From contig NC_052474.1 in assembly GCF_009730915.1 (NCBI RefSeq), positions 3,631,501-3,695,500 on the forward strand: DNA of 64,000 nucleotides. Direction: 5' to 3'. This DNA is from Dioscorea cayenensis subsp. rotundata (Eukaryota > Streptophyta > Magnoliopsida > Dioscoreales > Dioscoreaceae). Below the pieces are notes generated by a model that was not told the DNA's origin, searched no databases, and saw only the letters and a program-made list of their open reading frames with translations. The position numbers and the translations under genes were made by a program. Shown piece after piece: positions 20,636-42,356 of the stretch (positions are counted from its first letter, which is position 1; each line of letters begins with the position of its first letter).

Positions 20636-21602
20636 GGACGCGTTTAGTTGGATATAATTGAAAATGCAGTAGATTTGCATTTACTAATTTTTGTATTTGA
20701 AAATTCAGGAGAGCCAAACTCAGTGTTTGGTTGAATGCATTTGTAATGCTAATCACAAAATTTTGTATTTTGTTGGAGTGATTTGTAAATTTAGAATTTA
20801 TTAAATATTTAATATAATATAATATATTAATTATATATTATATTATTAATATTAATTACACTATAATCATATTTTATTTAATATTTTATAAAATATAATT
20901 ACGGTGTAATTAATTTTATGAGTAATTAATATAATTAATATATACTTAATTTATTATAATAAAATATAATATATTAATTATTTATTAAAATAATTAATAT
21001 AATATATCAATTATATACTATATTACTAATATTAATTACACTATAAATGCATTTTATTTAATATTTTATAAAATATAATTATGGTATAATTAATATTATG
21101 AGTAATTACTATAATTAATATATACTTAATTTATTATAATAAAATATAATATATTAACTCTTTATTAAAACAATTAATATAATATAATATATGAATGATA
21201 TGTATTATATTACTAATATTAATTACACTATAAATGCATTTTATTTAATATTTTATAAAATATAATTATAATGTAATAAATATAATTAATATAATATAAT
21301 ATATCAATTACATATTATATTACTAATATTAATTACACTATAATTATATTTTATTTAATATTTATAAAATATAATTATAGTGTAATTAATATTATAAGTA
21401 ATTAATATAATAATTATATTAATTACTGGATGGGATTCACTGGATGGGATTTTGAAATTCGGTCATTTTTGCCGAATTTCATAATCCCGTGACTTTTGGA
21501 TTTAAAAAAGAGATTCAGATCCATTGAAACAAACAAAGAATTTCTCAAATCCAAGAATTTTCAAATTTAAGTATTTTAAAATACGGCCAAACAAATAACC
21601 CC
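20636..21602. mobile_element. Harbinger/Tourist-like non-autonomous DNA transposon with internal tandem array
   Basis: The ends are GGACGCGTTTAGTTGG (left) and, reverse complemented, GGGGTTATTTGTTTGG (right), imperfect terminal inverted repeats of the 'GGG..GTTTGG' style. The element is flanked by TTA at 20633-20635 and 21603-21605, the TTA/TAA target duplication typical of PIF/Harbinger and Tourist MITEs. At 967 bp it is long for a MITE because its middle is an expanded AT-rich tandem repeat (next feature). It has no coding capacity. Confidence 0.65.
20811..21420. repeat. Tandem repeat of about 180 bp, about 3.5 copies, inside the Tourist-like element
   Basis: The landmark ATTAATTACACTATAA recurs at about 20851, 21031, 21217 and 21328, giving periods of 180, 186 and 111 bp. 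The last unit is shortened. Each unit also carries a TTTTATTTAATATTTTATAAA block and an AATTAATATAATATA block. The array is over 85 % A+T. Confidence 0.8.
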
Positions 21603-22246: not shown

Positions 22247-22469
22247 TAGGGAAAATTACTGTTCACCCCTCGTAATTTTCAAAACTTCCCAAAAACCCCC
22301 TTCTACTTTTACACACCACGGACAACCCTTCCGTTAGTGTTTAACTTCCTTTTACCCCCTACCGTTCACTTCGAAATGGGTCCATGTTGTGAAATCCCAT
22401 TTTTGGCACGAAAATGGTGGGAAAGGAAAGCCGAAATCACATCATGTATTGACCTTTTGAAGAACTTTC

Positions 22470-23835
22470 TAGCTTGGTTTCGATAGAGCGATGCCGAGGA
22501 GTTGCATTACATCTTGTTGTTCTCCTCGTTTATCATACTCGAAATATATAAATCGGTTTCTCGAGCGAGAAAAATGAAATTGATTTCCATCGGATTGGTC
22601 GAGTGCACTTCATCTTCGAATGAGATCGTAGTCGATTTTATTGTCGAGGCGAGCGTATGCCGTTGATAAAGTCTTCTCGTTTATGGTTGTAAAGTTGTAT
22701 TACGACGAGAAGAGCGATGAATTCTGACGAGTTCATTTCGTTGTAAAGTTCTTCTCGTTTATGGTTATCTATTTTGTATATTTTTAAATAATGTTTAACT
22801 ATTTGCTATTATCCGTTTAAATATTTTACTAATATGTTTAATAATTGTCATATCCGGGTTTAATACTTCCCATCTCCGTTTAACATTATCTTTACATGTA
22901 TAACTATTCATATTAACGTGTAAATTCTCAAAGTCTCTGCGTAAAACGGTGATCTTTTTCGTTTGATCTGAATTGTTGGCATGTGGCGTGGCGGTGTGAG
23001 GTTATGGTATCCCGTGCGTAGAATTAATGGCGGCATTAATTCTTATGCGCGATAACTATAGAATACCGAACACCCGTTCGTTCTCATCGATCGATATCGG
23101 CATCTGTGCGTTTAACTTTTTCCGGATATGAAGAGTCGACCAGCTTGTGGACTTCACAGCTAAATAGCAGGAAGAAACCTCCCACGTGACTGACCACTCC
23201 TCGATCGTCCTCATCATCCTCCTCCCTCTTCCTCCTCTTCCTCCTCTTCCCATGGACAACCACTCTATCGAAAGTATGTTTACGTGAGCCTTCTTCCCTT
23301 ATCTTGAGAATCGATTAAGCCGTAATCACGAACTAGTTAAACTATCTTTTTCTTGCCCAAGCGAAATCTTTGTCATAATTGCACGAATCGCGGAGGATTC
23401 TCCAGCGGTGGATGACGGGAAAGCAATTAAGAGAGCATTTCGACTTGGGTAAGAAAAGAAAGTTTTCACGTATTGCGTGATTGCGGAGGATTCTCTAGAG
23501 GAGGGAGATCGTGAAACATCCTTTAAAGACGAGGGTTGACATTTACCACTGAGACTTTTACGTTATCGTTTAAGAAAATGACTTCAGTGTACAACTATTA
23601 CGTTCTGTGTTTAACTATTAGGATCTTCGTTTAAGTCTGGCCATGACACATTGATTAATAGTCGTTTTCATGAATGTGTGTTGTTTAACCCTTTTTTTAA
23701 TGTTATGCGTTATGCGAGGTTCGAGTTGATGCGCATGTTATGCAGCCATGTGAGCGTTCGAATGTCTGGGACACTTGTTTTAGATTATCACGGTCGAGTC
23801 GTGAGTGTCCAAAGTCCGAAGCGGACGTTGTAAAT
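22470..23835 (+). pseudogene. Rearranged transposase fragments in the left part of the MULE
   Basis: Two patches repeat parts of the main transposase region. 22590-22660 resembles 24795-24855 (shared TTCATCTTCGAATG / CTCCATCTTCAAATG and GTCGAGGCG / GTCGAGGCA blocks). 23715-23760 resembles 26588-26635 (GGTTCGAGTTGAT then TGTTATG.AGC). They indicate internal duplication or a nested second copy. None is open over a useful length. Confidence 0.5.
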
Positions 23836-24585
23836 ATTGTAAATGTTGTAAATGTTTTATAAATAAAAAGCGAAACAAGCTTATTTGATTTGTGAACTTA
23901 CGAAATTTAAACATAGACCTAGTAAAAAAACAAAGCAGATGTGGGAAACAAAAGAGCGTCGTTGTAAACAATAGAAAATACATAAATATGTTTAAAGCAG
24001 TGACAACGGTGTTTAAGAAAAGAGTTACTCTTTAAAGCAGTGACAGCGGTGTAAACATGATAGAAAAAGTTAAACACTACTCAAGTTACTCTTTAAACAA
24101 TGATAGACGGTGTTTTAAGAAAAATACGTAAAGATGTTTAAGCGGTGACCGGGAGGGTACCCATCTTCAGCCGATTTCGAGTGAAAGCATTCGATTTAAA
24201 CAATAACATATTATTTACATGATATAGACTTTAGTTAAACGAGTTAACCGTTTTTTAAACACTATATGTATCTGTTTAAACATAAAAAAAGCAGCGTTTA
24301 CGAGAGACTCATGTTGAGTTGAGAACTTTCATTCGAGCGATGAAAATATGTCTTCCTCATGACGAGTGACATATATTTCCCTTTTTGCCCTTGGGATGGA
24401 GGGAAAAATACAGCCCAATCACATCACGTCTAGTCTAACCTCTATCGTACACTGCTAAGCTTTTTTAGTTTTGCCTTTACATCTGCATTTTGTTCTTTTA
24501 CATCTTCTACTTCTTCTTCTTACGTCTTCTTTTTGTTCTTCATTTCATTTGGTTTATGCTGATTTGGTTTTCGGCGGAGTATATT

Positions 24586-27110
24586 ATGGAGAGTTTTTGT
24601 GGTATTGCTAGATTGAGCGGGGGAGGGAAGAGTGCTAATGTTCGGGCTCGAGACTTCTTGGGAGTTGGTGTTAGGCGAGATATGTGACGATGGGGTCTCG
24701 AAGTTTCTCTTATCGAGGTTAAGTTCATCACACGGATGGATATAAAAGCGGTTTTGCCCGATCGAAAGCGATGTTGACTTCCGGTCGGATGTGTCACGTC
24801 CACTCCATCTTCAAATGTCTTTGTAGTTGATCTTGTCGTCGAGGCAGGAAAATGTGCCATTCTAGAGATCCTAATGAAAAGCGAGGGTTTTACTCGTTGT
24901 AAGTTCCTTTTTCTTTTAATTATTCCGGTTATGCAGGGGGTCATTATTCTTTAAATATATCAAAAGTCATTTGGTTAACATATTTTACTAGTCCTTTACG
25001 TTATTAGTTAATTGGTTAAGTATTTAATTTAACGTTTAACTATTGTCAGTTATCAAACTTAAACATTATATTCTCAACTTAACATATTGATCTTTTCATT
25101 TGGTGAAGTGTTGGCGGGAATTCGGATTACGAGTGCTCCCGATTCGTCCCCATGGTGACCACGGCGGTGTGGGATGTCTTCCTTCCTCGATCGAGTTATT
25201 ACGAAGTGTTGTCGTTGGATATTGGACATGACGTTTTGGCGAGTGTCGAACATTTCAGGGATGTACTTCAAAAATCATGCAATCGAAAAGGAATTTTTGA
25301 CTTAAATTCGTAAGAGCGAAAAACGTCGAGTGTGTTGTGGAATGCTGCTGCTGGAGTGGTTGTCGTTAGCGCTTCATGCATCAAAGAGTATAACAAAAAA
25401 ATACTTTTCGAGAATCAAGACGATCAACCCAGTCGCACTTGCGGTGGTGGCATAGGGTTGACGTCGCATCGAGCGTCGAAAAATGGGTTAGCCCTGCGAG
25501 TGATTGAGCTCGGGGACCGTCCCTTGTCTGAGGCCATCGACATTCAGGAAGGACATGTTGCGGGAACATGGTGTCCACATACCATACAAAGCGAGGCTTG
25601 GTTGGGGAAAAAGAGCATGCCGGGTGGTCCTCGGACGAGTGACATCTCCGACTATGTTGTTTGCTTTTGGTATGTGGATAAGGTGGGCTGAGACAAATCC
25701 AGCGGCGTTGCGATCGTGGAGAGAGGCGGTGATCGTTTTAAGCGTGCATTCTTTTTCTTCGGTAGCGTGTATTGTGGGATTGAGAGGGCTTGCGGGGCCA
25801 GCTGCTGTTTCTCGATGGTACCCGCCTCCTTGGAAAAATATCGGGAGTACGACTCTTTCGGGTGCCGCGGGGAAAGATGAGTAACAATGGTTTTCCACGT
25901 CGCCTTGGTATAGTCGACAGCGAGACCCGATGCCAATTGGACTTAGTTCGTATCTAAGTTAGGCGATGCCTTATCACGGTGGAGATTATCATGAGATAAT
26001 TACCTTACGTGTCGAGACAGGTCGAGGGCCTTGTGAGCGCAATTGCGAGAGTCTTCCCTTCGCCGCCACGTGCGTTACGTCTTCGACATTTTGGAGCCAA
26101 TTTTATAAAAAGCCCGATGTCGAGACTTGGGAAGGCGTTGAGGGAGATGCTTGGTCTATATGCTTCCGCGTTGCGTGGGCATCCGCGGCTAAAAGATTTC
26201 GATGATACTAGTGAATGAGCTGCGAGGGCCGTATCACTCGAAGCTCATCGTCTGGTTGATTAATAAATCGGATATGGCACATTGGTGAGATTATCGTTCG
26301 GGAGGTGATCGTTGGGGTGAGATGTATTCGAGCGTCGGCGGAGTCGTTCGATGCTTGGATCGAGGAAGCTCGTCGTTTCTAGGGGTGGCGAAAATGGTGC
26401 GACTCCGTAAGGTCTGCGAATGTTGGTTTCTGATTAACATTTAGTATTACCCTTTAAACATTCTCGATCTTTGTTTAATTACACTTGTCGACTTTAAATA
26501 TTAATCGTTTAGTTTAAATAATTTACGATAATGTTTAAACATGTTGTGAGTATTTAACCATCAGCTGTCTTTGTTTAACCTTATTTGCAGGGTTCGAGTT
26601 GATCGCGTGTTATGTAGCAGGCGTGAGCAGCGACGAAATGGGAGACCTACTTATGCCAGACGTACATTCGAAGTTAGAGATCATTGTTGAGGGCGGTCGA
26701 AATCTTACGTGTTGATGCGTTGTGTCGATGATCGTTACGAAATGTCGACGATCACGGCAAACTACGTGGATCTCGCCATCGAGAACTTTGTTACGTATCG
26801 AAGGTGGCAAGTTTATGGTATCCCTTGCGAGCATACTTGCGCGTGACAATGCGAGCCGAGACACAGCGTACGTGATTTATTGGCGGGTGCTTCAGCAGTC
26901 GACGATTACAAAGCTGGCGTCTGAGGAAGCTATATTCCCAGTGCAGGCGATGACGGGCCTTGAGACGGATCAGTGAGCCGTTTGCGACCGCTGTGGCTAG
27001 AAAGCGACTACGGGCGGCTGAGGCGAAAAAGGATCGAGTCGCGGCGTTTGATGTCCATGAGTTACATTGCGGCATGCGCGAGGATCGGTCAGATCGGCGA
27101 TCTTGCATAG
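24586..27110 (+). pseudogene. MuDR-type (MURA-like) transposase, frameshifted
   Basis: Recognised by motifs that fall in MULE order but in changing frames: an N-terminal ATG region at 24586; YKARLGWGK near 25580 (the family's 'AWLGKE' element); the first DDE-region motif FLDGT at 25808-25822; LYHGGDYHEII near 25970-26000; a GLVSAIARVFPSPP block at 26030-26075 followed by RHFGANF; INKSDMAHW near 26255-26285; a SWIM-type finger at 26761-26846 whose second half RRWQVYGIPCEHTCA is clear while its CxC half is scrambled; and a degenerate CCHC-like knuckle near 27057-27110 (LHC...RSC). The Asp expected before GLVSAIARVF is lost to an indel. A probable intron lies at about 26430-26590. The protein would catalyse cut-and-paste transposition. 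This copy cannot. Confidence 0.8.
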
Positions 27111-27899
27111 CTGTCGCCGAGCTAGGCATTGTTAATAAAGCCCGGCGATGACGAGGAAACATTGTGTATTGATGGGAGTAGTTTCCATGTTAAACTCTTA
27201 CTCTTTCTGACGAATTGAATGTATTTAAGCAGGAGGCGTTGTTATTTTAAGCGGATACTGTTTGTAATTTGAAATATTTCAGTGATGTTTTAAAGCGATA
27301 TATGGTATATTTAAACAATGAAGCGGAAATGTACACAACTTCTGACGTAAATTAAACAATGAAATGGCCGAATGAAATTTAACACCTTCTGATTGAAAAC
27401 AAACAAAACTTTACATTGAGATATACAAGCATGTTTTGAATGATGCGTATACTCGCCCTGACTTCGCGGGTATCTAAATATTCTAAAGAAACATTGTTTT
27501 AAAAGCGTTGTATTGATGGGGCGACTTTTCCATGTTGATTAAGCAGTGAGTGCGTTTATTTAACGAGCGGTGTTATTTTAAGCGAGTGCACCGTAATTTT
27601 TGAAATATTTAAAGCGATGTTTAAGCGATATATAGTATATTTAAACAATGAAAGTGAAATGTACGTAATTCAGAGTAAATTAAACAATGAAATAGCGAGA
27701 TGGAATTTAACATGCTTTCGATTGAAAACAAACAAAATTTACATTAAGATATACAAGTCGTACTCTTGAACACGAAAACAATGAATTGAATTTGTCGGTT
27801 ACATTTGAAACAAAATTGACGGTCGAGATATACGGGACATGTTCTTGCAAAAACAAAATTTAACCGCGCTTGTGACCCCACGTTTATCGTGGGCCTGAG

Positions 27900-30800
27900 A
27901 TTTACGCCTCCACTCCTTAGGTATCACGGGTAGCATGTCGTAATGCGAGGGTGAGGGCGTCATGCTGCGGTGGCAGTAACTTCTCACCCTCACGGTGGTG
28001 CTCGATAAACCGCATGGCGTGAGCCGGTGCGATCGGCGCTTCCTTGTTTTTAGGCGTGGGGTTTTACGTATGTCGATGCGTGGCGGGGTGCTGATCGTCG
28101 CCGAGCTCGTCTAACTCCATGCTCGACACAGAAGGTCGAGATAGATTCATTGTATCGAGAATATGCACAGTCGAGATTAGAATCTTGATTTAAATACCAA
28201 GCGGATATTAATCCGGACGTAATTAAAAGAACTACCATGTCGAGCGTCCTTATCGTACCCGGGACGTGAAGAATAATGCTGTATTCTTGTTTTGATCGTT
28301 GTCCGGACGACGGCGTGGAAAGTGGCCATTCACGTGATTGCTCGGGAGGATGACAATTTGAACTTCATGCGAGTTTCTTGTAGCGGCATCCCCGATCGCT
28401 TACCGTAATTGTCGTGTGCGTCGTCTGCGCACGGCGTACGCGGTATGGCGATGATGCGTGATGGGCGGCGCTTCTTGCATAAGGATATGGCTCTTTGCTC
28501 GTGACTTTTGTATTATCGCATCTGGCGTCCATCACATCATCAGGTGACCGTCTCCTTCCCCTCGGCCGGCGTGTATAATCTCTGTCGGCGGTGGTGCTCT
28601 GACGTCGTTCTTCAGCAGCGGCGAGTCTTTGAGGTTAAAGCGATAACCGAGATATAATAAGACCGTATTTGTAAATATTTAAATGATGTGCTCGATTTGT
28701 TACATGATATTATATATAATTAAAGCGATAAGTAGACACTTAAATGATAACGATAAAGGTATTAAACACTATTAGGGTAATAGTTAAACACTATAATAAA
28801 ACCCTTTAAACAATATCGTAAAAACGTTTACGCTTACCGAATCCGTAGGCCGGCGATTGAGGAAGATCCTCGTCGACTCTGCTCGTATTTGTTAAAACGA
28901 CTCGAGGCAGACCATTTCTTCTTCTTGAATAAAAAGCTTTACGGTGATGCGGTCGATTTTTGATTGGCCTTGATCGTCTCTCGTTGCTTTCGATCGGGGT
29001 CTGATGACATCTTCCTTCGATCGCGAGGGGACGATGGCGGCGAGCATCGGCTCGAACAGCGTCCTTACATGGTTGTTCTTGTTGTGGGATTGTGATAGCG
29101 ATCTTGAGGAGACGGCGGCGGCAGCGTCAGCCATGACCTCTTACGTGGTTCTTGTTGTGGTGGGCATTGTGTCGCTGAGCGATCTTGTCGGCCGTCGGCA
29201 GCGGCAGATTGACGATCTTCTCAGCGCGTGGCATGACAACGACATGCGTTTGGGAGGCCAGCGCCCTTAACTTATTCTTGATCTTCGTTGATTGTGTCCG
29301 TCTTTGATCTGGCCGATCTCAGCGATCGGTTCAGCGGGTCGAGGATTCAGCGACGAAGTCGGCGACCTTCTCAGCAATGACCGCCACATCGATCCCTCGC
29401 GATGTCCTTCTCAGCGCCAGACATCGATGCCGCCGATCGGGCTGTTGCTATTATTTCATCGTCGGCCCTGACGGTGGAGAGCGAGAAAGCGAGTGATTAT
29501 TCTCTCTCTCATCGAAGTCTCTTGAATGTGGCCGCCTTGGAATGACCTTCCGATGATGTCCTCGTCGTCGAGTCCGGCCTCGTTTAGTCCGGTGCTGAGT
29601 TCTTTCGAGGATGGCGCGGTCGATTGTGACGTCTTTCCGTGTCGCACGCCGCCGAGCCGACAATGACTCGGTCGTCGATACTCTGGCGTCTGCGCAGGGT
29701 TGCGGTGACATCTTACTCGTATGTCGGGAATACATTTCTACCGGTCGGAGTGCCATGGTCGAGTGCCCTACTCGCCCCAATGCGTTGTCGTGGTGAGGGG
29801 TTGTTGCAATCTGTAGGGGTGAGGGAGGGCTCTCCGATCGAGATCGTCTGGCGTAGTGGGTGGAAATGGGAGGCAGGCGTCCGGTAGCGATAGGCGCCTG
29901 CCTCTGCCTTGAGCCCAGTGGTTCGGGCGATGGCGTCCGTCGAGTCGGTTGGCTGATAAATATCGCTATTGGCGTCGCCGGGAACCATCTCGAGAAACAC
30001 ACATATGTAAAGCGAGCAATTTCGGTGAAATCGTTCGTTTTAAAACTATAAAAACTATGTTTAAGCAGTGTTTATATATTTAAAGCGTTATAGAATATAA
30101 TTAAGCGGAGAACAAAATATTTAAACGATATGAATAAGAGTTAAGCGGTAAATCACTAAAGTTAAAGCGCTAAATAAAATGTTTAAGCGTTAAAGACTTA
30201 TGTTAAACATTGTCCGTGATTTATTACCTCTTTTCCGTCGGCGATGACAAGCTCGTTTCTCACAGTCGCTTGCTTCCGGTAGTAACTTTCACCGTGACTA
30301 TCAACATCCTTGGGATCTTGCGAAACGGACTTTCTTCCCGTTCGGTCGGCTACGTAAAACCAGGGCGTTAAGCGTGCCAGAGCAACCCTTAATGTACCTG
30401 TGTTGATAGTCTTACCGTCAGCATCTATCTTGCGCTCAGGCGGTAGCTAATGGAATATCCTCCATAAACCCGCTTGTCGTCGCTGCGCCCGTGCGTGTCG
30501 CCCGTGGGTGATTAGATCGTCGCGTAATCAGCGATCAGTTGGGCCGAAGGCGTGATGTATTTGGGAAGAGACGTCGCATGAGGTCACGCGTCGAGTTTGA
30601 AAGAGTATCTTCTTCTCCCTGCTGTGAACAAGTTTCACTGAGCGAGTGCTCTTCGATGGAGTCTACGTGTCTCAGTGGGTCTTTGATAGATATGCCGCCG
30701 CTTGAGCCCAGGCTGGTTTTCTTCTTACGAAAGACCAGCTGCGTCGCCGTCGTGGCCGAGACCAACCGCGAGGCCACATCTTGAGGTCTGAAACTCGTGG

Positions 30801-31010
30801 GGCTTTCCCGATCCACGAGATTTATTGAGATGTAGACCATCATTGCCTTTGCGAAAAGAGAATCAGAAGGGCTCTCTCTTGGTATATGAGCTTCTAGCTC
30901 GGTGAGCAGCGCAAGCGATTGTCCAGGTCGAATAATCTCCAGTGTCAGGGGTCGTGTTGTATTTTCAATTAGACTAAAAGTCTCCACTCTGGGTGTCCAG
31001 AATAGCATCG
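27900..31010 (-). pseudogene. Ulp1-like (peptidase C48) gene of the MULE, frameshifted
   Basis: On the minus strand, 28356-28322 reads IVILPSNHVNGH. This is the 'N-H-x-N-G-H-W' catalytic-His region of plant-transposon Ulp1 proteases, with the following Trp replaced by Phe. In another frame, 28271-28230 reads SSRPGYDKDARHMV, and 28014-27990 reads MRFIEHH, the segment that normally follows the catalytic D-C-G. That Cys motif is not readable here. Open frames further upstream on the same strand (30535-31008, 28892-29134) probably belong to its N-terminal part but have no motif I know. Ulp1 proteases remove SUMO-like modifiers. Their role in transposons is unsettled. This copy is inactive as read. 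Confidence 0.65.
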
Positions 31011-31969
31011 ACCATTAACTGGGTTGACACGCCGCTAATCACAAACTGCGGCCAGTAACAACGCATCGACGTGCGGTATTGACAAAGTTTAGCGGAAATA
31101 TAAGGTTTTAAGCGGTAAACTCTGGGTTATTAAGCAGGAGATATAAAATGTTAAGCAGAGACCCATTTTGTTAAGCGAGGCGAGAATAACTTACGAGGAG
31201 ACAACAAATGTTAAGCTGTAACATCTCATTTCTTAAGCGTCAACCTCGTTTGTAAAAGCTACGACCATACTCAAGCGAAGCGGGAAATGTACGTTATAAA
31301 TATTCACGAATCATATGATCGAGAAAAACTAATTCGATGGTGTATACATCTGACAAATGCAAAACAAAACAAAACCCCGCGTAGAAATCTCCTATGAGAC
31401 TAACAAAACCCAGTAGAAATCCCCTGCAGAGACTTGATATCTTCAACAAAAAGCAGAGCGCAAAACAAAAGAAAAATCTTTCTTTATGTGAGCGAGTTAA
31501 CGTAAAAGCCATATCTCAATCTTAGATTTCAAGTCGATGAAATGCCAACTAGTTGCGGCGGAGGGACTTCTCCTTCGAGATCTACGGGTGGAAAGGGAAA
31601 AAGGCGATGAAATGCCGATTACAGGAGAGCTTAGCCGTAGAGACAACTTCGGAGGCGACGGAAATGGAAAAAGGCGAAGGCGTGAGTTGAGAAAAAGCGA
31701 TTAAGCGAGCTCGATAAATTACGTCTCTCGGGAGTTACCTCTACGGAAAACCGCACTCACTCTGAGTCGCTCGAGATGGTGCCGTGCCACGACTCGTCTG
31801 AGGCGTTTTACGTCGAAAAATTTGAAACTCACTCCGATTCGCATCAGATTCTGAGGGGTTTGGGGTTTGAAAAACGTAGAGTTTAAAAAGGAGGGGATTT
31901 TGGGGATTACAAAGCTAATGGGGTGTTTTTGCGATTTTACAGAGCTAAAAGGGTTTTTAGCAATTTCCA

Positions 31970-35550: not shown

Positions 35551-37572
35551 ATGCCTTCCCGCCAGCCCATGCCCCCGCCGCCGCCGCCGCCGCCGCCGCC
35601 ACCGCCGAAGCCACCGCCGCATACCGCGGCCATCCGCCACCACCCCATGGTCGTCCCACTTATTGCTGCGGTGGCTCTGGCAACCGTCTTCGCAGCGGCC
35701 TCTGCTCTAATCTTTTTCCTCTATCGCCGCCGTGAGTCGAAGGGGCTCCCTCTCGATGCCGGTGGTGCAGCCACCGGCGTTGCAGCACTTCAGCTACGAG
35801 CAGCTGCGGCGAGCCACTGGGTCTTTCTCCCCTTCCCATCGCCTTGGACAGGGAGGGTTCGGTCCTGTGTTCCGCGGTGCTCTCCCCAATGGTCAGGCCA
35901 TCGCCGTCAAGCTCATGGAAGCCGGATCCCTCCATGGCGATGTCCAGTTTTTGAATGAGCTCGCCCTCGCGGAGAAGATGGTCACCTTGGATCGCCGGTG
36001 GGTGCTTCCCCCTCTCGGCTTCTGCCACTCCCGATCCAAGCCAGCTCGATGGCGACGCTTCAAGCGGGAGACGAGCATCGACGATGATGATCCGTCTCCG
36101 GGGCGACGGGTTCTTTTGGTGTACGAGTTGATGCACAACGGTAGTCTCCAGGATGCGTTGCTCGACCGGCGTTGTCCGGAGCTCCGTGATTGGTCTCGCC
36201 GCTTCTCCGTGGCCCTCGATATCGCCCGCGGCCTTCAGTTCCTTCATTCGATATGTGACCCCCGGTGATCCATGGAGATATCAAGCCCAGCAACATTCTC
36301 CTTGATGCCAATCTCTCTGCTCGGATCGCTGACTTCGGTCTTGCGACATTCAAGAGCTCCATCGGCGATGAACTTCAGCGTGATGAAGAGGACGCCGTCG
36401 AGAAGACTAAAAAGATCGAAGATGGTGCTTCGGTTATCACGGTCGAGAGCTTGGTTACGACGACGGCGACGACGGAGACCTATGAGAAGACGAAGACACA
36501 GGGGCAGGAGGAGGATGAACGGTTTTCCAGAGTTGAAGAAACCGAGACGTCGTCCTCTCAAATGGAGGTTGCGGGTTGTTTGGATGTGGCTTCAACTTCG
36601 GAAACGGTAGGGTTCGATAGGCTGAGTGTCGACAGCGAAACGCAGAGAAGCAGCCGGAAAAGACCTGGTGGCGTGCTCTCCAGCAAGGACTACGTGATGG
36701 AGTGGATCCGCTCGGAGATCAAGAAAGAGCCTCCAAGGAGCGATTGGATCGCCGCGTCTTCTCCTTCGGTCTCGTCCGGGAGTGGCAAGCGGAAGGCGTC
36801 GGAGAAGCGGAAGCACCAACGGAGACTCGAGTGGTGGGCATCTCTCGACGAGGATCGTACAAAGAAGAAGGAGAAGAGCCGGCCAGCAAGGGAGTGGTGG
36901 CGTGAGGAGTTCAGCGAGGAGCTGGAGAACAAACACACGCTCGCAACGATTACCAAATTTTCTAGCAATGCTGAAGCTGAAGAACAACAAGGGTGGCTAA
37001 ACAATGACACTGATTCATCGATGAGCACAAGAAGGAAGAAGAAGAGGAAGAAGAAGACGAGTGGAGGAACCGGTGGGCAGAGTGGCCAGGACTCTGTAGA
37101 CTTTCCCAAAGGCAGCACCTTTAGTAGCACTCCAAGCTTGCGAGGCACAGTATGTTACGTTGCCCCTGAATTCGGCGGTCGCCGGGGGCAATCATCAGAG
37201 AAATGCGACATTTATAGCTTTGGAGTTCTACTCTTGGTCATTATCTCCGGCCGGAGACCATTGCAAGTGACTGCCTCTCCAATGTCTGAGTTTGAGAGGG
37301 CTAATCTCATCTCATGGGCTCGGCAGCTTGCTCGCTTGGGGAGGCTTCTTGACTTGGTTGATCCATCTCTCAGTGCCGTGGACAAAGAACAAGCTCTTCT
37401 CTGCATCACTGTTGCTCTGCTTTGCATTCAAAGGTCTCCAGCACGGAGGCCTTCTAGCAAGGAGATTGTGGGAATGCTTTCTGGTCAGTCAGAGCCTCCC
37501 AGTCTCCCTCTGGAGTTCTCTCCACCACCTCCTGGAAAATTCACATCCAAGTCCCGCAGGAAATCCAAGTGA
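35551..37572 (+). CDS. Proline-rich receptor-like Ser/Thr kinase (At2g45590/At4g25390 type), two compensating frameshifts
   Basis: A single-exon membrane kinase. From the ATG at 35551 the frame gives MPSRQP, a run of Pro, and one membrane segment (VVPLIAAVALATVFAAAS, about residues 34-58) ending FFLYRRR. It then shifts near 35730 into a second frame with the kinase N-lobe (GQGGFGPVFRG P-loop, AIAVKLMEAGS with the ATP-anchoring Lys, LLVYELMHNGSLQDALL). It shifts back at a C5 run (36258-36262), where CDPR-stop should continue into PVIHGDIKPSNILL. The C-lobe follows: DFGLATFKS, a family-typical insert of over 200 residues rich in Arg/Lys/Glu, then CYVAPEFGG, DIYSFGVLLL and a kinase end before TGA at 37570. 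The HGD in place of HRD makes it non-RD. Total span is 674 codons, the family length. Net shift is zero, so two sequencing indels or one ancient out-of-frame block fit equally well. Confidence 0.85.
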
Positions 37573-39950: not shown

Positions 39951-42054
39951 TCAGATTTCTCTTGAATTGGAGCTGCCATCCAACAGAGTATCAGCAGAAG
40001 AAGCCCTGGATGAGGCTCGGGAAGAACGATCATGCCCTCTCGTTGTCACTGTTTTGCAAGAATAAGTGAAGTTACCTGTGCTTGTGTATCCATCAAAAGC
40101 CAATGGCGGAGCATAGTATGTGGGCTGTGGCACAGTTGCCGGAAGGCTGGGCAATGGAGCTTCAAGTGTCAGTACCTGTATAGCCTGCCTGATTGATGGC
40201 CGGAAATTATGGTCAGGGTGAGCACACCACAGCCCCAGTGTCATCAACCTCTCAACTTGCTTCTTTTCAAATTCACCATTCAGTCTCTCATCCACAGCTT
40301 CAATGAGCCTCCCCTGTCCATAGAGCTCCCACACCCAGTCCACCAGCCTCATCTTCGCCTCACCTGCTTTAGGATCCACTGGCTTTCGTCCACAAGCAAT
40401 CTCCAGAGCCACCACTCCAAAGCTATACACATCAGACTCCTTGCTTGCCTTGCTCGTTGTCACACATTCTGGCGCAAGGTACCCCATTGTCCCTGCAAGC
40501 ACTGTAGTCTGTGAGCCAAGGCCATGGTCTACAAACCTGGCAAGGCCGAAGTCTCCAAGCTTGGCATTGTAACTGGAATCAAGCATCACATTGCTGGACT
40601 TCACATCCCGGTGAACCACACACTGTTCCCACTCTTCATGGAGATAGAGCAGTGCAGAGGCAAGATCATGAGCAATCTTGTACCTTACTGGCCATTCTAG
40701 AGAACCCATCTTGCCAAAAAGATGCGAGTCAAGGCTGCCATTGGGCATGTATTCATAAACCAAGAGTAATTCATTATACTCATGGCACCAGCCTATCAAT
40801 CGCACCAGATTCCGGTGGCGCAGCCTACTTATCACTGTCACCTCTGATACGTACTCCTTCCTTCCTTGGCTTGAACCTGGGGCGATCTTCTTCACAGCCA
40901 CCTTCTCTGTCTTTGAGCTATTTGCTTAAAACTCCCAAATACACTCCTCCGAATCCTCCCTGCCCAAGCTTGCCTTGTTCGTTGAAGTTCTTTGTTGCAG
41001 CAATCAGCTCTTTGTATGTGAACCTCCTTGGCCCTGTCACTTGTACAAACTTATCCTCCATTGATCTGTCAAGTGCAAAGATTTCATTGTCTTTTTTCTT
41101 CCTGACTTGCATTTCTTTCTTTGCAAACAGGAAGTACCCAATGCCGGTCACCAACACTCCGATTGCGATGATGACAATTCCCACCAGCCAAGGCACATGC
41201 CTCCTCACCTGATCATGACTGGCTGGTCCTGTTCCATTCAATTGCTCACCGTCTCCAAAACAAGAATTAAAATCCCAGGCAATTATCTGGTGTAGTTCTG
41301 TTGAGTGTCCTGTCGAAGCTGATAATCCGACAATCACTGTTGGAGGAAGAACTTGACTGAGATTAAGATTGTATGCCAAGCTTGGAGTGCCATTGAATGC
41401 TTCTCCATCATAGGAAAGGAAGACATAGAGATCATTTGTGGTGCTATTGTAGCCTATCCACGCAGAGCCCTGGTTCTCCTCTTTGAGATCACTATGCCAA
41501 CTCATTGTCTGGTTGGAGACTATTGAATTGAAGTTTATGCCAATGTGATTTCCATCAGGATCCCATCTATTTTTGTAAGTATCAAACTCCACAGCAAGAA
41601 GCCTCGTCGCTGAGGAATTGTTGGTGGTGGTGTTGTAAAGGCCTAGCCACTGCCCGGTGGCGTTGAGTGGCATTTTGTAGTCCACTGGTGCCATGAAGAA
41701 TGCAAGACCATCTCCGTAGTTGCTCTCATTGAGAACCTTGATGTTGAAGTTGAAGTGTGTGACAAAGTCGGCAGCAAAGCCAGTTGCCATGTCCCAGATT
41801 TTGATTGGCATTGTATAGACCACATGGCCTGCACTGAATATAAGGTTGCCATCGGCCTGATTGCGTGTCAGCTGAATTATATGGTCTCCATTGGCATAGG
41901 CATCGCCGGAGTAGTTAATCCCAGGGGTGTTTGGGCTAAATGATGTGAAATTAAACAAAGTATATGATGTGATTGCAGGAACAAAACAAGTGACAAATGA
42001 GAAGAACACTAGTATTACTACATTCAGGGATGGAGAAGTGGAGAAGGAAGCCAT
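39951..42054 (-). CDS. L-type lectin receptor kinase (LecRK-IX type), one frameshift
   Basis: A single-exon gene as usual for the family. The ATG at 42054 starts MASFSTSP with a hydrophobic signal peptide. Next come a legume-lectin domain (SYTLFNFTSFSPNTPGINYS near the start, VEFDTYKNRWDPDGNHIGIN for the carbohydrate/metal site), a membrane span around residues 288-308 (WLVGIVIIAIGVLVTGIGYF), and the kinase P-loop GQGGFGGVY (about 364-372). At 40918-40930 the frame ends in TAG after YLGVLSK and resumes one base off as ANSSKTEKVAVKKIAPGSS. It then runs through HRDVKSSNVMLD, DFGLARFVD, GTMGYLAPE and DVYSFGVVALEIA to TGA at 39951. The span is 2104 bp, one more than 701 codons. These receptors perceive extracellular signals in defence and development. 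The frameshift means no full protein as assembled. An indel error in TTTTAA is a simple alternative. Confidence 0.87.
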
Positions 42055-42356
42055 TGTAATTGAAGAAGGGATGGTGTTAGTTGAGACTTTGTTTGGCTTT
42101 GGTCTTCTTAGAGTTGACAATTGTTTGCTTGGAGTTTTTTTGGGTTGCTTATTTGAGAGGAGATTGAGGTGAAGAGCTTTGGTTTTCTCTTCAAATGATA
42201 AACCAAGTGATTAGAAATGTTGTGCTTGGCTTCCCTCCATTTGGATGATGCCTGCTGCTTAAAAGACTCTTGTATGGATTCCTTTAAATCTTTGGCCGGC
42301 TTGTAATAATCCAAGCAAATGATACATGTTATCAAGCCAATTTAGTGGTTAAATCA

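What the first reader, a model, noticed from the sequence alone, without database searches (positions are those of the whole stretch)
22249..31969. Kaonashi-like MULE: MuDR transposase converging on a Ulp1-type protease
Transposase motifs in order (DGT, GLVSAIARVF, SWIM GIPCEH, CCHC remnant) on + and an ILPSNHVNGH Ulp1 catalytic-His region on - sit in one compositionally distinct block of about 9.7 kb. Plant MULEs that carry a SUMO-protease-like gene are known (Kaonashi), but what the protease does for the element is unresolved, and a second gene of this size with an unrecognised N-terminal half may be worth describing.
Basis: partly seen in the sequence, partly recalled or inferred. Interest (0 to 1): 0.72.

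Follow-up and report, generated by a model that had tools for sequence, protein, structure and literature searches.

The report
Yam-like jumping gene with spaced tags
This is an old, broken plant DNA transposon carrying a transposase gene and an opposing SUMO-protease-like gene, and its non-coding parts are studded with a short DNA word repeated every two turns of the double helix, which suggests a landing platform for a protein that keeps the element from being silenced.

Summary
Window 22249-31969 is a full-length Mutator-like element (MULE). In other genomic copies the left end falls at 22249 (15 of 16 read) and the right end one base past 31969 (10 of 10 readable), where an assembly gap begins; 5 of 9 copies with both junctions have exact 9-bp duplications. 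The + strand transposase is proven through relatives (DBD_Tnp_Mut 7e-23, MULE 1e-15, SWIM 3e-7). The - strand gene is Ulp1/C48: no Pfam hit in the window or in 8 copies, but collinear His and Cys blocks of copies match a C48-positive sister element of the same convergent layout. In the window the catalytic Cys codon reads Arg. Spacers between motifs are unrelated, and the pattern recurs in the 17 copies examined. This resembles VANC/KIU anti-silencing systems of Arabidopsis VANDAL elements. DUF1985 was not found in this family. Anti-silencing is inferred, not shown.

The parts
22249..31969 (.). whole MULE, 9.72 kb; last terminal base lies in the gap
   Evidence: copies start and stop here; 9-bp target duplications in 5 of 9 readable copies (by eye)
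22249..22262 (+). left terminus GGGAAAATTACTGT, short imperfect inverted repeat
   Evidence: local alignment of the two ends scores 56 against a mean of 37 and a maximum of 59 in 200 shuffles, so long inverted repeats are not supported
31956..31969 (-). right terminus, reads (G)TGGAAATTGC on the minus strand
24590..27150 (+). transposase gene, frameshifted; exons about 24590-24896, 25108-26406, 26592-27150 (splice-like sites by eye)
   Evidence: Pfam on ORFs of copies; tblastx to sister element; frames
27850..28640 (-). Ulp1 (C48) catalytic part, frameshifted
   Evidence: Cys-side block 28021-27926 in the window E 0.03, in copy C214 E 3.6e-11
28322..28362 (-). catalytic His block, ILPSNHVNGH; His codon 28322-28324
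   Evidence: homologous block in copies E down to 2.4e-12, not reported for the window itself at E 1
28029..28031 (-). catalytic Cys site, reads Arg here. Among 13 sequences with the QGSAD block: Cys in 7, Arg in 5 (window included), Tyr in 1
   Evidence: alignment to the sister protein
28836..31900 (-). unrecognised amino-terminal half of the Ulp1 gene, extent approximate
   Evidence: no Pfam family better than E 0.026 in 24 frames of 8 copies; no DUF1985 match in the copies
22790..22875 (.). phased TTTAA array, upstream of transposase
23569..24280 (.). phased TTTAA array, upstream of transposase
   Evidence: spacings
26453..26579 (.). phased array in a transposase intron, spacings 21,19,20,21,19,21
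27190..27710 (.). array in the spacer between the two gene ends, with an internal duplication (27236-27429 and 27567-27757, 82%)
28678..28810 (.). array in an intron of the minus gene, spacings 42,20,22,22,21
30040..30208 (.). array in an intron of the minus gene, spacings 20,19,41,42,20,8,13

Best explanation
The block is an inactive copy of a Mutator-like transposon with two convergent genes. Gene one is the transposase (shown through relatives). Gene two encodes an Ulp1-type protein (shown by homology through relatives). Most of its non-coding stretches carry the word TTTAA (best form TGTTTAA) at about 20.75-bp spacing, so that motifs face the same side of the helix (shown). The most likely mechanism is an anti-silencing system of the VANC/KIU type: a protein made by the element, most likely the minus-strand Ulp1 gene product, binds the phased motifs cooperatively in cis and in trans and removes repressive marks or blocks RNA-directed methylation, so that the transposase is expressed (all inferred). 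The Ulp1 domain may act by stripping SUMO from silencing factors at the bound element (speculative). In the copies read here the system looks broken: the genes are full of frameshifts (some may be assembly errors) and the window's protease has lost its catalytic Cys, though binding without catalysis could survive that loss.
For: Termini and duplications; transposase domains; Ulp1 blocks and a sister element with the same layout. TGTTTAA 32 in the element against 4.0 expected (maximum 8 of 50 order-2 shuffles), and 17 in the 53 kb of window flank against 22.1 expected; 18-39 in each of 17 copies, window included. Phase: 77 in-phase and 13 out-of-phase pairs; jittered positions mean 30.5, maximum 50 of 2000; 300 order-2 shuffles at most 13 in phase; best period 20.5-21.0 in 14 of 17 copies and about half of that in the other 3. 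Best of all 5-mers in the element: in minus out 64; 12 shuffles at most 12, four 10-kb control stretches of the window at most 15, 8 other MULE loci of 3.3 kb at most 9. Spacers unrelated: adjacent identity 0.35 (16 pairs), random 0.33, shuffled 0.30. Motif core varies less than other A/T words in a leave-one-out test, 0.0177 against 0.0278. 3 of 505 TGTTTAA lie in protein-homologous stretches, 63 expected by length. Spacer-array length 430-905 bp with direct repeats in 15 of 15 copies compared. The same places (upstream of the transposase, introns) and the same repeat turnover are described for VANDAL21 targets (PMC5735166 passages), and KIU Vandals are said to recognise motifs in non-coding regions (PMC13317346 passages).
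Against: No binding, methylation or expression data. The sister family with a better Ulp1 gene shows no strong phased word (AACAT 13 in, 3 out; 12 shuffles of it reach in minus out 9), although only 7.6 kb of it was read. One of the 8 other MULE loci, L004, also has TTAAA as its most phased word, weakly (6 in, 0 out), so the phase may not be exclusive to this family; the genome-wide count that would settle it did not complete. The core conservation excess is modest (1.6-fold). Copies are related, so the 17 are not independent. Lack of the motif in coding parts is partly due to higher GC.
Confidence: 0.6

Rival explanations
1. The phased motifs are binding or enhancer sites for the transposase or for host factors (transcription, splicing or replication of the element), not for an anti-silencing protein.
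For: The binder is unknown; arrays flank and interrupt both genes. Nothing here ties motif to protein.
Against: Sites lie mostly inside, in introns and the 3' spacer, not at the ends where a transposase acts; the closest precedent for such arrays in the papers seen is VANC.
Confidence: 0.2
2. The arrays are the eroded remains of a 21-bp minisatellite without function.
For: The 3' spacer does contain longer tandem duplications; tandem-repeat software finds a few 20-22 bp units of about two copies.
Against: Spacers between cores are no more alike than random in the window copy, while core and spacing persist in several separate blocks and in the 17 copies.
Confidence: 0.1
3. The periodic word reflects DNA mechanics (curvature or nucleosome placement) of AT-rich non-coding DNA.
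For: Two-turn phasing of A/T steps can affect wrapping; the blocks are AT-rich.
Against: The word is specific (TTTAA, often with TG before it), the AT-rich flanks of the same window show no such phase (16 in and 24 out on the left, 41 and 37 on the right), and T-tract-then-A-tract order is the one that does not curve DNA (recalled).
Confidence: 0.08
4. The Ulp1 piece is only a captured host fragment carried passively.
For: MULEs often capture gene pieces (PMC2528002 passages).
Against: 14 of 18 other stretches match it and a second family has the same gene in the same place.
Confidence: 0.05

Closest known systems
KAONASHI (KI/KIU) non-TIR MULEs of Arabidopsis
   Same: MULE with an Ulp1 gene in reverse orientation to the transposase; degenerate termini; KIU Vandals said to recognise motifs in non-coding regions (PMC2528002, PMC13317346: passages read)
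   Different: likely monocot host; motif TGTTTAA with 20.75-bp phase; DUF1985 not detected; the copies read are broken
VANDAL21/VANDAL6 with VANC21/VANC6
   Same: short motif in upstream regions and introns, tandem-repeat turnover (PMC5735166 passages); degenerate TIRs (PMC10398659 passages); 9-bp duplications (PMC6446971 passages)
   Different: VANC21 and VANC6 motifs are YAGTATTAY and AGTTGTCC/AGTTGTAC; a figure legend of PMC5735166 names DUF1985 and DUF287 as VANC domains, and the word Ulp1 does not occur in its main text; Arabidopsis
ULP1-carrying MULEs of melon, rice and grapevine
   Same: transposase plus Ulp1, either orientation (PMC2528002 passages; van Leeuwen 2007 seen only as a reference)
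   Different: no phased motif array mentioned in the passages read

Membership tests
Mutator superfamily (MULE) | MuDR-type transposase domains | tested here: met
   DBD_Tnp_Mut, MULE, SWIM in ORFs of copies; window copy alone only SWIM at 0.047
Mutator superfamily (MULE) | 8-11 bp (usually 9) target duplications | tested here: met
   5 of 9 readable copies exact 9 bp (by eye); the window's own cannot be read because of the gap
KAONASHI (KIU) MULE | Ulp1/C48 gene opposing the transposase | tested here: met
   not by Pfam directly
KAONASHI (KIU) MULE | no or degenerate terminal inverted repeats | tested here: met
   only a short imperfect match at the ends
KAONASHI (KIU) MULE | intact catalytic His and Cys | tested here: not met
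   window copy: His present, Arg at the Cys site; of 13 sequences with that block 7 read Cys, 5 Arg (window included), 1 Tyr
VANC anti-silencing system | short motif repeated in non-coding regions | tested here: met
VANC anti-silencing system | motif regions expand and contract as tandem repeats between copies | tested here: met
   15 copies, the 3' spacer only
VANC anti-silencing system | DUF1985 domain in the protein | tested here: not met
   0 of 24 frames of 8 copies; no family copy among the 150 scored DUF1985 places of 455 candidates. Elsewhere in the genome 10 of 47 C48 places have DUF1985 1.4-2.6 kb upstream on the same strand
VANC anti-silencing system | protein binds the motif and removes DNA methylation | not testable with these tools
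   needs bench work
VANDAL clade | transposase groups with VANDAL transposases | not tested
   no plant reference transposases at hand

The most novel reading that the evidence does not exclude
A sequence-specific anti-silencing system of VANC type operates, or operated, in a monocot: a MULE whose Ulp1-type protein, without a recognisable DUF1985, reads a new word (TGTTTAA) laid out at two helical turns through the non-coding parts of its own element.
Probability: 0.4. Interest if true: 0.75.

Novelty: new variant of a known kind. Interest (0 to 1): 0.58.

Why it matters
How one small protein recognises a whole transposon and little else, and what the captured SUMO-protease domain does, are open questions in plant transposon biology. 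Here motif and spacing persist while the spacers between motifs are unrelated, which points to selection on motif plus helical phase and gives a directly testable prediction. If the host is a monocot, such self-recognition extends beyond the plants in which I know it to have been shown.

Tried and rejected
Pfam on whole frames and ORFs of the window for C48: nothing. Weak hits (CHASE4 0.0013 and EAD1 0.15; Syntaxin 0.045; PI-PLC-Y 0.086; DUF1380 0.026 and DUF736 0.039) were judged chance matches. PDB search of two Ulp1 fragments: no C48; one chance-like hit to tripeptidyl-peptidase 2 at 0.0046. My first guess for the catalytic Cys (near 28190) was wrong and was replaced by the site at 28029-28031. 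A simple conservation comparison was biased because motifs were chosen on the window copy; one search replaces it and gives a smaller effect. A third class (words of the same letters that overlap a core, mismatch 0.0185) was not used, because it shares most of its bases with the core. Long inverted repeats: alignment of the two ends did not beat shuffles (56 against a maximum of 59). No Rfam family reached its threshold in the window. Looking up the yam reference to fix the host by size gave no figure.

Not answered: a genome-wide count of phased arrays by pattern, and a search of the genome with the Ulp1 fragment; the machine was busy each time.

Full report
What is there. Window 22249-31969 is one complete Mutator-like element. 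A DNA search of the host genome (584,211,761 bases; the window is C4:3631501-3695500) gave 74 matches. Besides the window they lie in 18 other places, at 71-93% identity; only 19 of 4282 first-look candidates were scored, so this is a lower bound. Sequence was available for all 18 stretches; 16 of them with the window copy were used as the '17 copies'. Dropped from that set were C9:30.64M, which lacks the left end, and C4:9.77M, which is short and rearranged. Some of those kept are cut by the fetch or hold gaps (C12, C1543, C619, C7, C15:4.46M, among others). Left junctions fall at window 22249 in 15 of 16 and one base later in 1; right junctions one base beyond 31969 in 10 of 10 readable, where the gap begins. 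Exact 9-bp duplications by eye: TAAACAAAA, TTTTTAAAA, TAAAAGAAA, TTAAATAAT, TATTAATAA, that is 5 of the 9 copies with both sides readable. One more agrees in 7 of 9 bases and three do not agree.

The transposase. The window copy is too broken for Pfam, but ORFs of copies carry DBD_Tnp_Mut (7.3e-23), MULE (1.4e-15) and SWIM (3.1e-7). The genome holds many other MULE matches, many in long open frames (150 scored of 3312 candidates).

The minus-strand gene. Pfam sees no C48 in the window or in the copies tested. The genome has 47 C48 matches (150 of 365 candidates scored), none in this family. Two of these loci, fetched as L052 and L053, align with the family's minus strand in collinear blocks: a DDVMD block, the catalytic His block and the catalytic Cys block (tblastx 4.6e-17 and 9.6e-20; per-block tblastn down to 2.4e-12 for His and 3.6e-11 for Cys). 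At E below 0.001 the His block is found in 10 and the Cys block in 4 of the 17 copies; in the window only the Cys-side block appears, at E 0.03. L053 with the adjoining L054 is a sister element with the same convergent order of transposase and Ulp1; its Ulp1 ORFs score C48 at 0.0047 and 0.0024, and those of L052 at 0.0016 and 2.9e-6. In the window copy the Cys site reads Arg, as in 4 other copies; 7 read Cys and 1 Tyr. So some copies lost the residue while others kept it. The amino-terminal half has no recognised domain.

The phased array. TGTTTAA occurs 32 times in the element against 4.0 expected from an order-2 model, and 17 times in the 53 kb of flanks against 22.1. Over the 17 copies, pair distances between TTTAA/TTAAA cores peak at 20-21, 40-42, 60-63 and 80-84 bp. 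For the window copy 77 pairs are in phase and 13 out of phase over equally many distances; when positions are jittered by up to 10 bp the in-phase count averages 30.5 with a maximum of 50 in 2000. Among all 5-mers TTAAA is by far the most phased (in minus out 64), against at most 12 in 12 shuffles, 15 in four 10-kb control stretches of the window, and 9 in eight other MULE loci of 3.3 kb. Against exclusivity: in one of those eight, L004, TTAAA is also the top word, weakly (6 in, 0 out). One intron has spacings 21, 19, 20, 21, 19, 21. Spacers between phased cores are unrelated, so it is not simply a worn tandem repeat. The arrays lie upstream of the transposase, in introns of both genes and in the 3' spacer; intron limits are by eye. 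3 of 505 TGTTTAA over the 17 copies fall in protein-homologous stretches against 63 expected by length, a contrast that is partly compositional. The 3' spacer varies from 430 to 905 bp among 15 copies and holds direct repeats in 15 of 15.

Interpretation. VANC21 binds YAGTATTAY in non-coding parts of VANDAL21; tandem-repeat turnover of such regions is reported upstream of VANA21 and in introns of VANB21 and VANC21 (PMC5735166, passages). PMC10398659 (passages) adds degenerate TIRs as a common VANDAL feature. PMC13317346 (passages) says that KIU genes are Ulp1-carrying VANC genes whose elements recognise motifs in non-coding regions, with the Ulp1 capture placed at the monocot-eudicot separation and conserved in eudicots. 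I recall, without having been able to read it (not held), that Sasaki et al. 2022 reported helical periodicity as a determinant of VANC targeting; only its reference entry was seen. The present element fits this anatomy closely. What is inferred and not shown is that the Ulp1-type protein is the binder and that the outcome is loss of silencing.

Host. The plastid rbcL of the assembly scores best in the PDB with 1wdd (1078.5 bits) and 5wsk (1067.4), above all other chains listed (at most 1059.8). I recall these two as rice and wheat, and spinach, tobacco, pea and Arabidopsis among the rest; the table names no organisms. This favours a monocot. DUF1985 gave 150 matches (150 of 455 candidates scored), and 10 of 47 C48 places have it 1.4-2.6 kb upstream on the same strand, with none on the opposite strand within 5 kb among the rows compared. 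So VANC-like domain pairs exist in this host, though not detectably in this family.

Limits. Indels in the copies are nearly as frequent as substitutions, and neighbouring host ORFs also look frameshifted, so part of the decay may be assembly error. Copies are related and do not count as independent tests. The searches for in-print reports of such arrays in monocots were made, in an open-licence library only; none of the listings or passages that I saw reports one.

Noticed in passing
L054 with L053 (C9:3086000-3093600): Sister MULE family, more intact, with the same convergent transposase and Ulp1 layout but without the TTTAA phase; its best phased word is AACAT (13 in, 3 out), near shuffle level.
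   Followed up: partly
genome-wide: DUF1985 is abundant in this genome and sits 1.4-2.6 kb upstream of 10 of 47 C48 places on the same strand: VANC/KIU-like genes in a probable monocot.
   Followed up: partly
L004: Another MULE locus whose most phased 5-mer is also TTAAA, weakly (6 in, 0 out, 26 sites in 3.3 kb).
   Followed up: no
window 22544-22650 and 24740-24845: 72% identical segments: part of the first transposase exon region seems duplicated upstream.
   Followed up: no
window 35711-37572 and 39951-42210: Kinase-like host ORFs next to the element each break into two overlapping frames, which may be assembly indels or pseudogenes; gene names are by eye.
   Followed up: no
window 20788-21444: AT-rich array of about 180-nt repeats just left of the element.
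   Followed up: no
C17:15.82M and C20:14.50M copies: A further duplication of about 490 bp in the 3' spacer array.
   Followed up: partly
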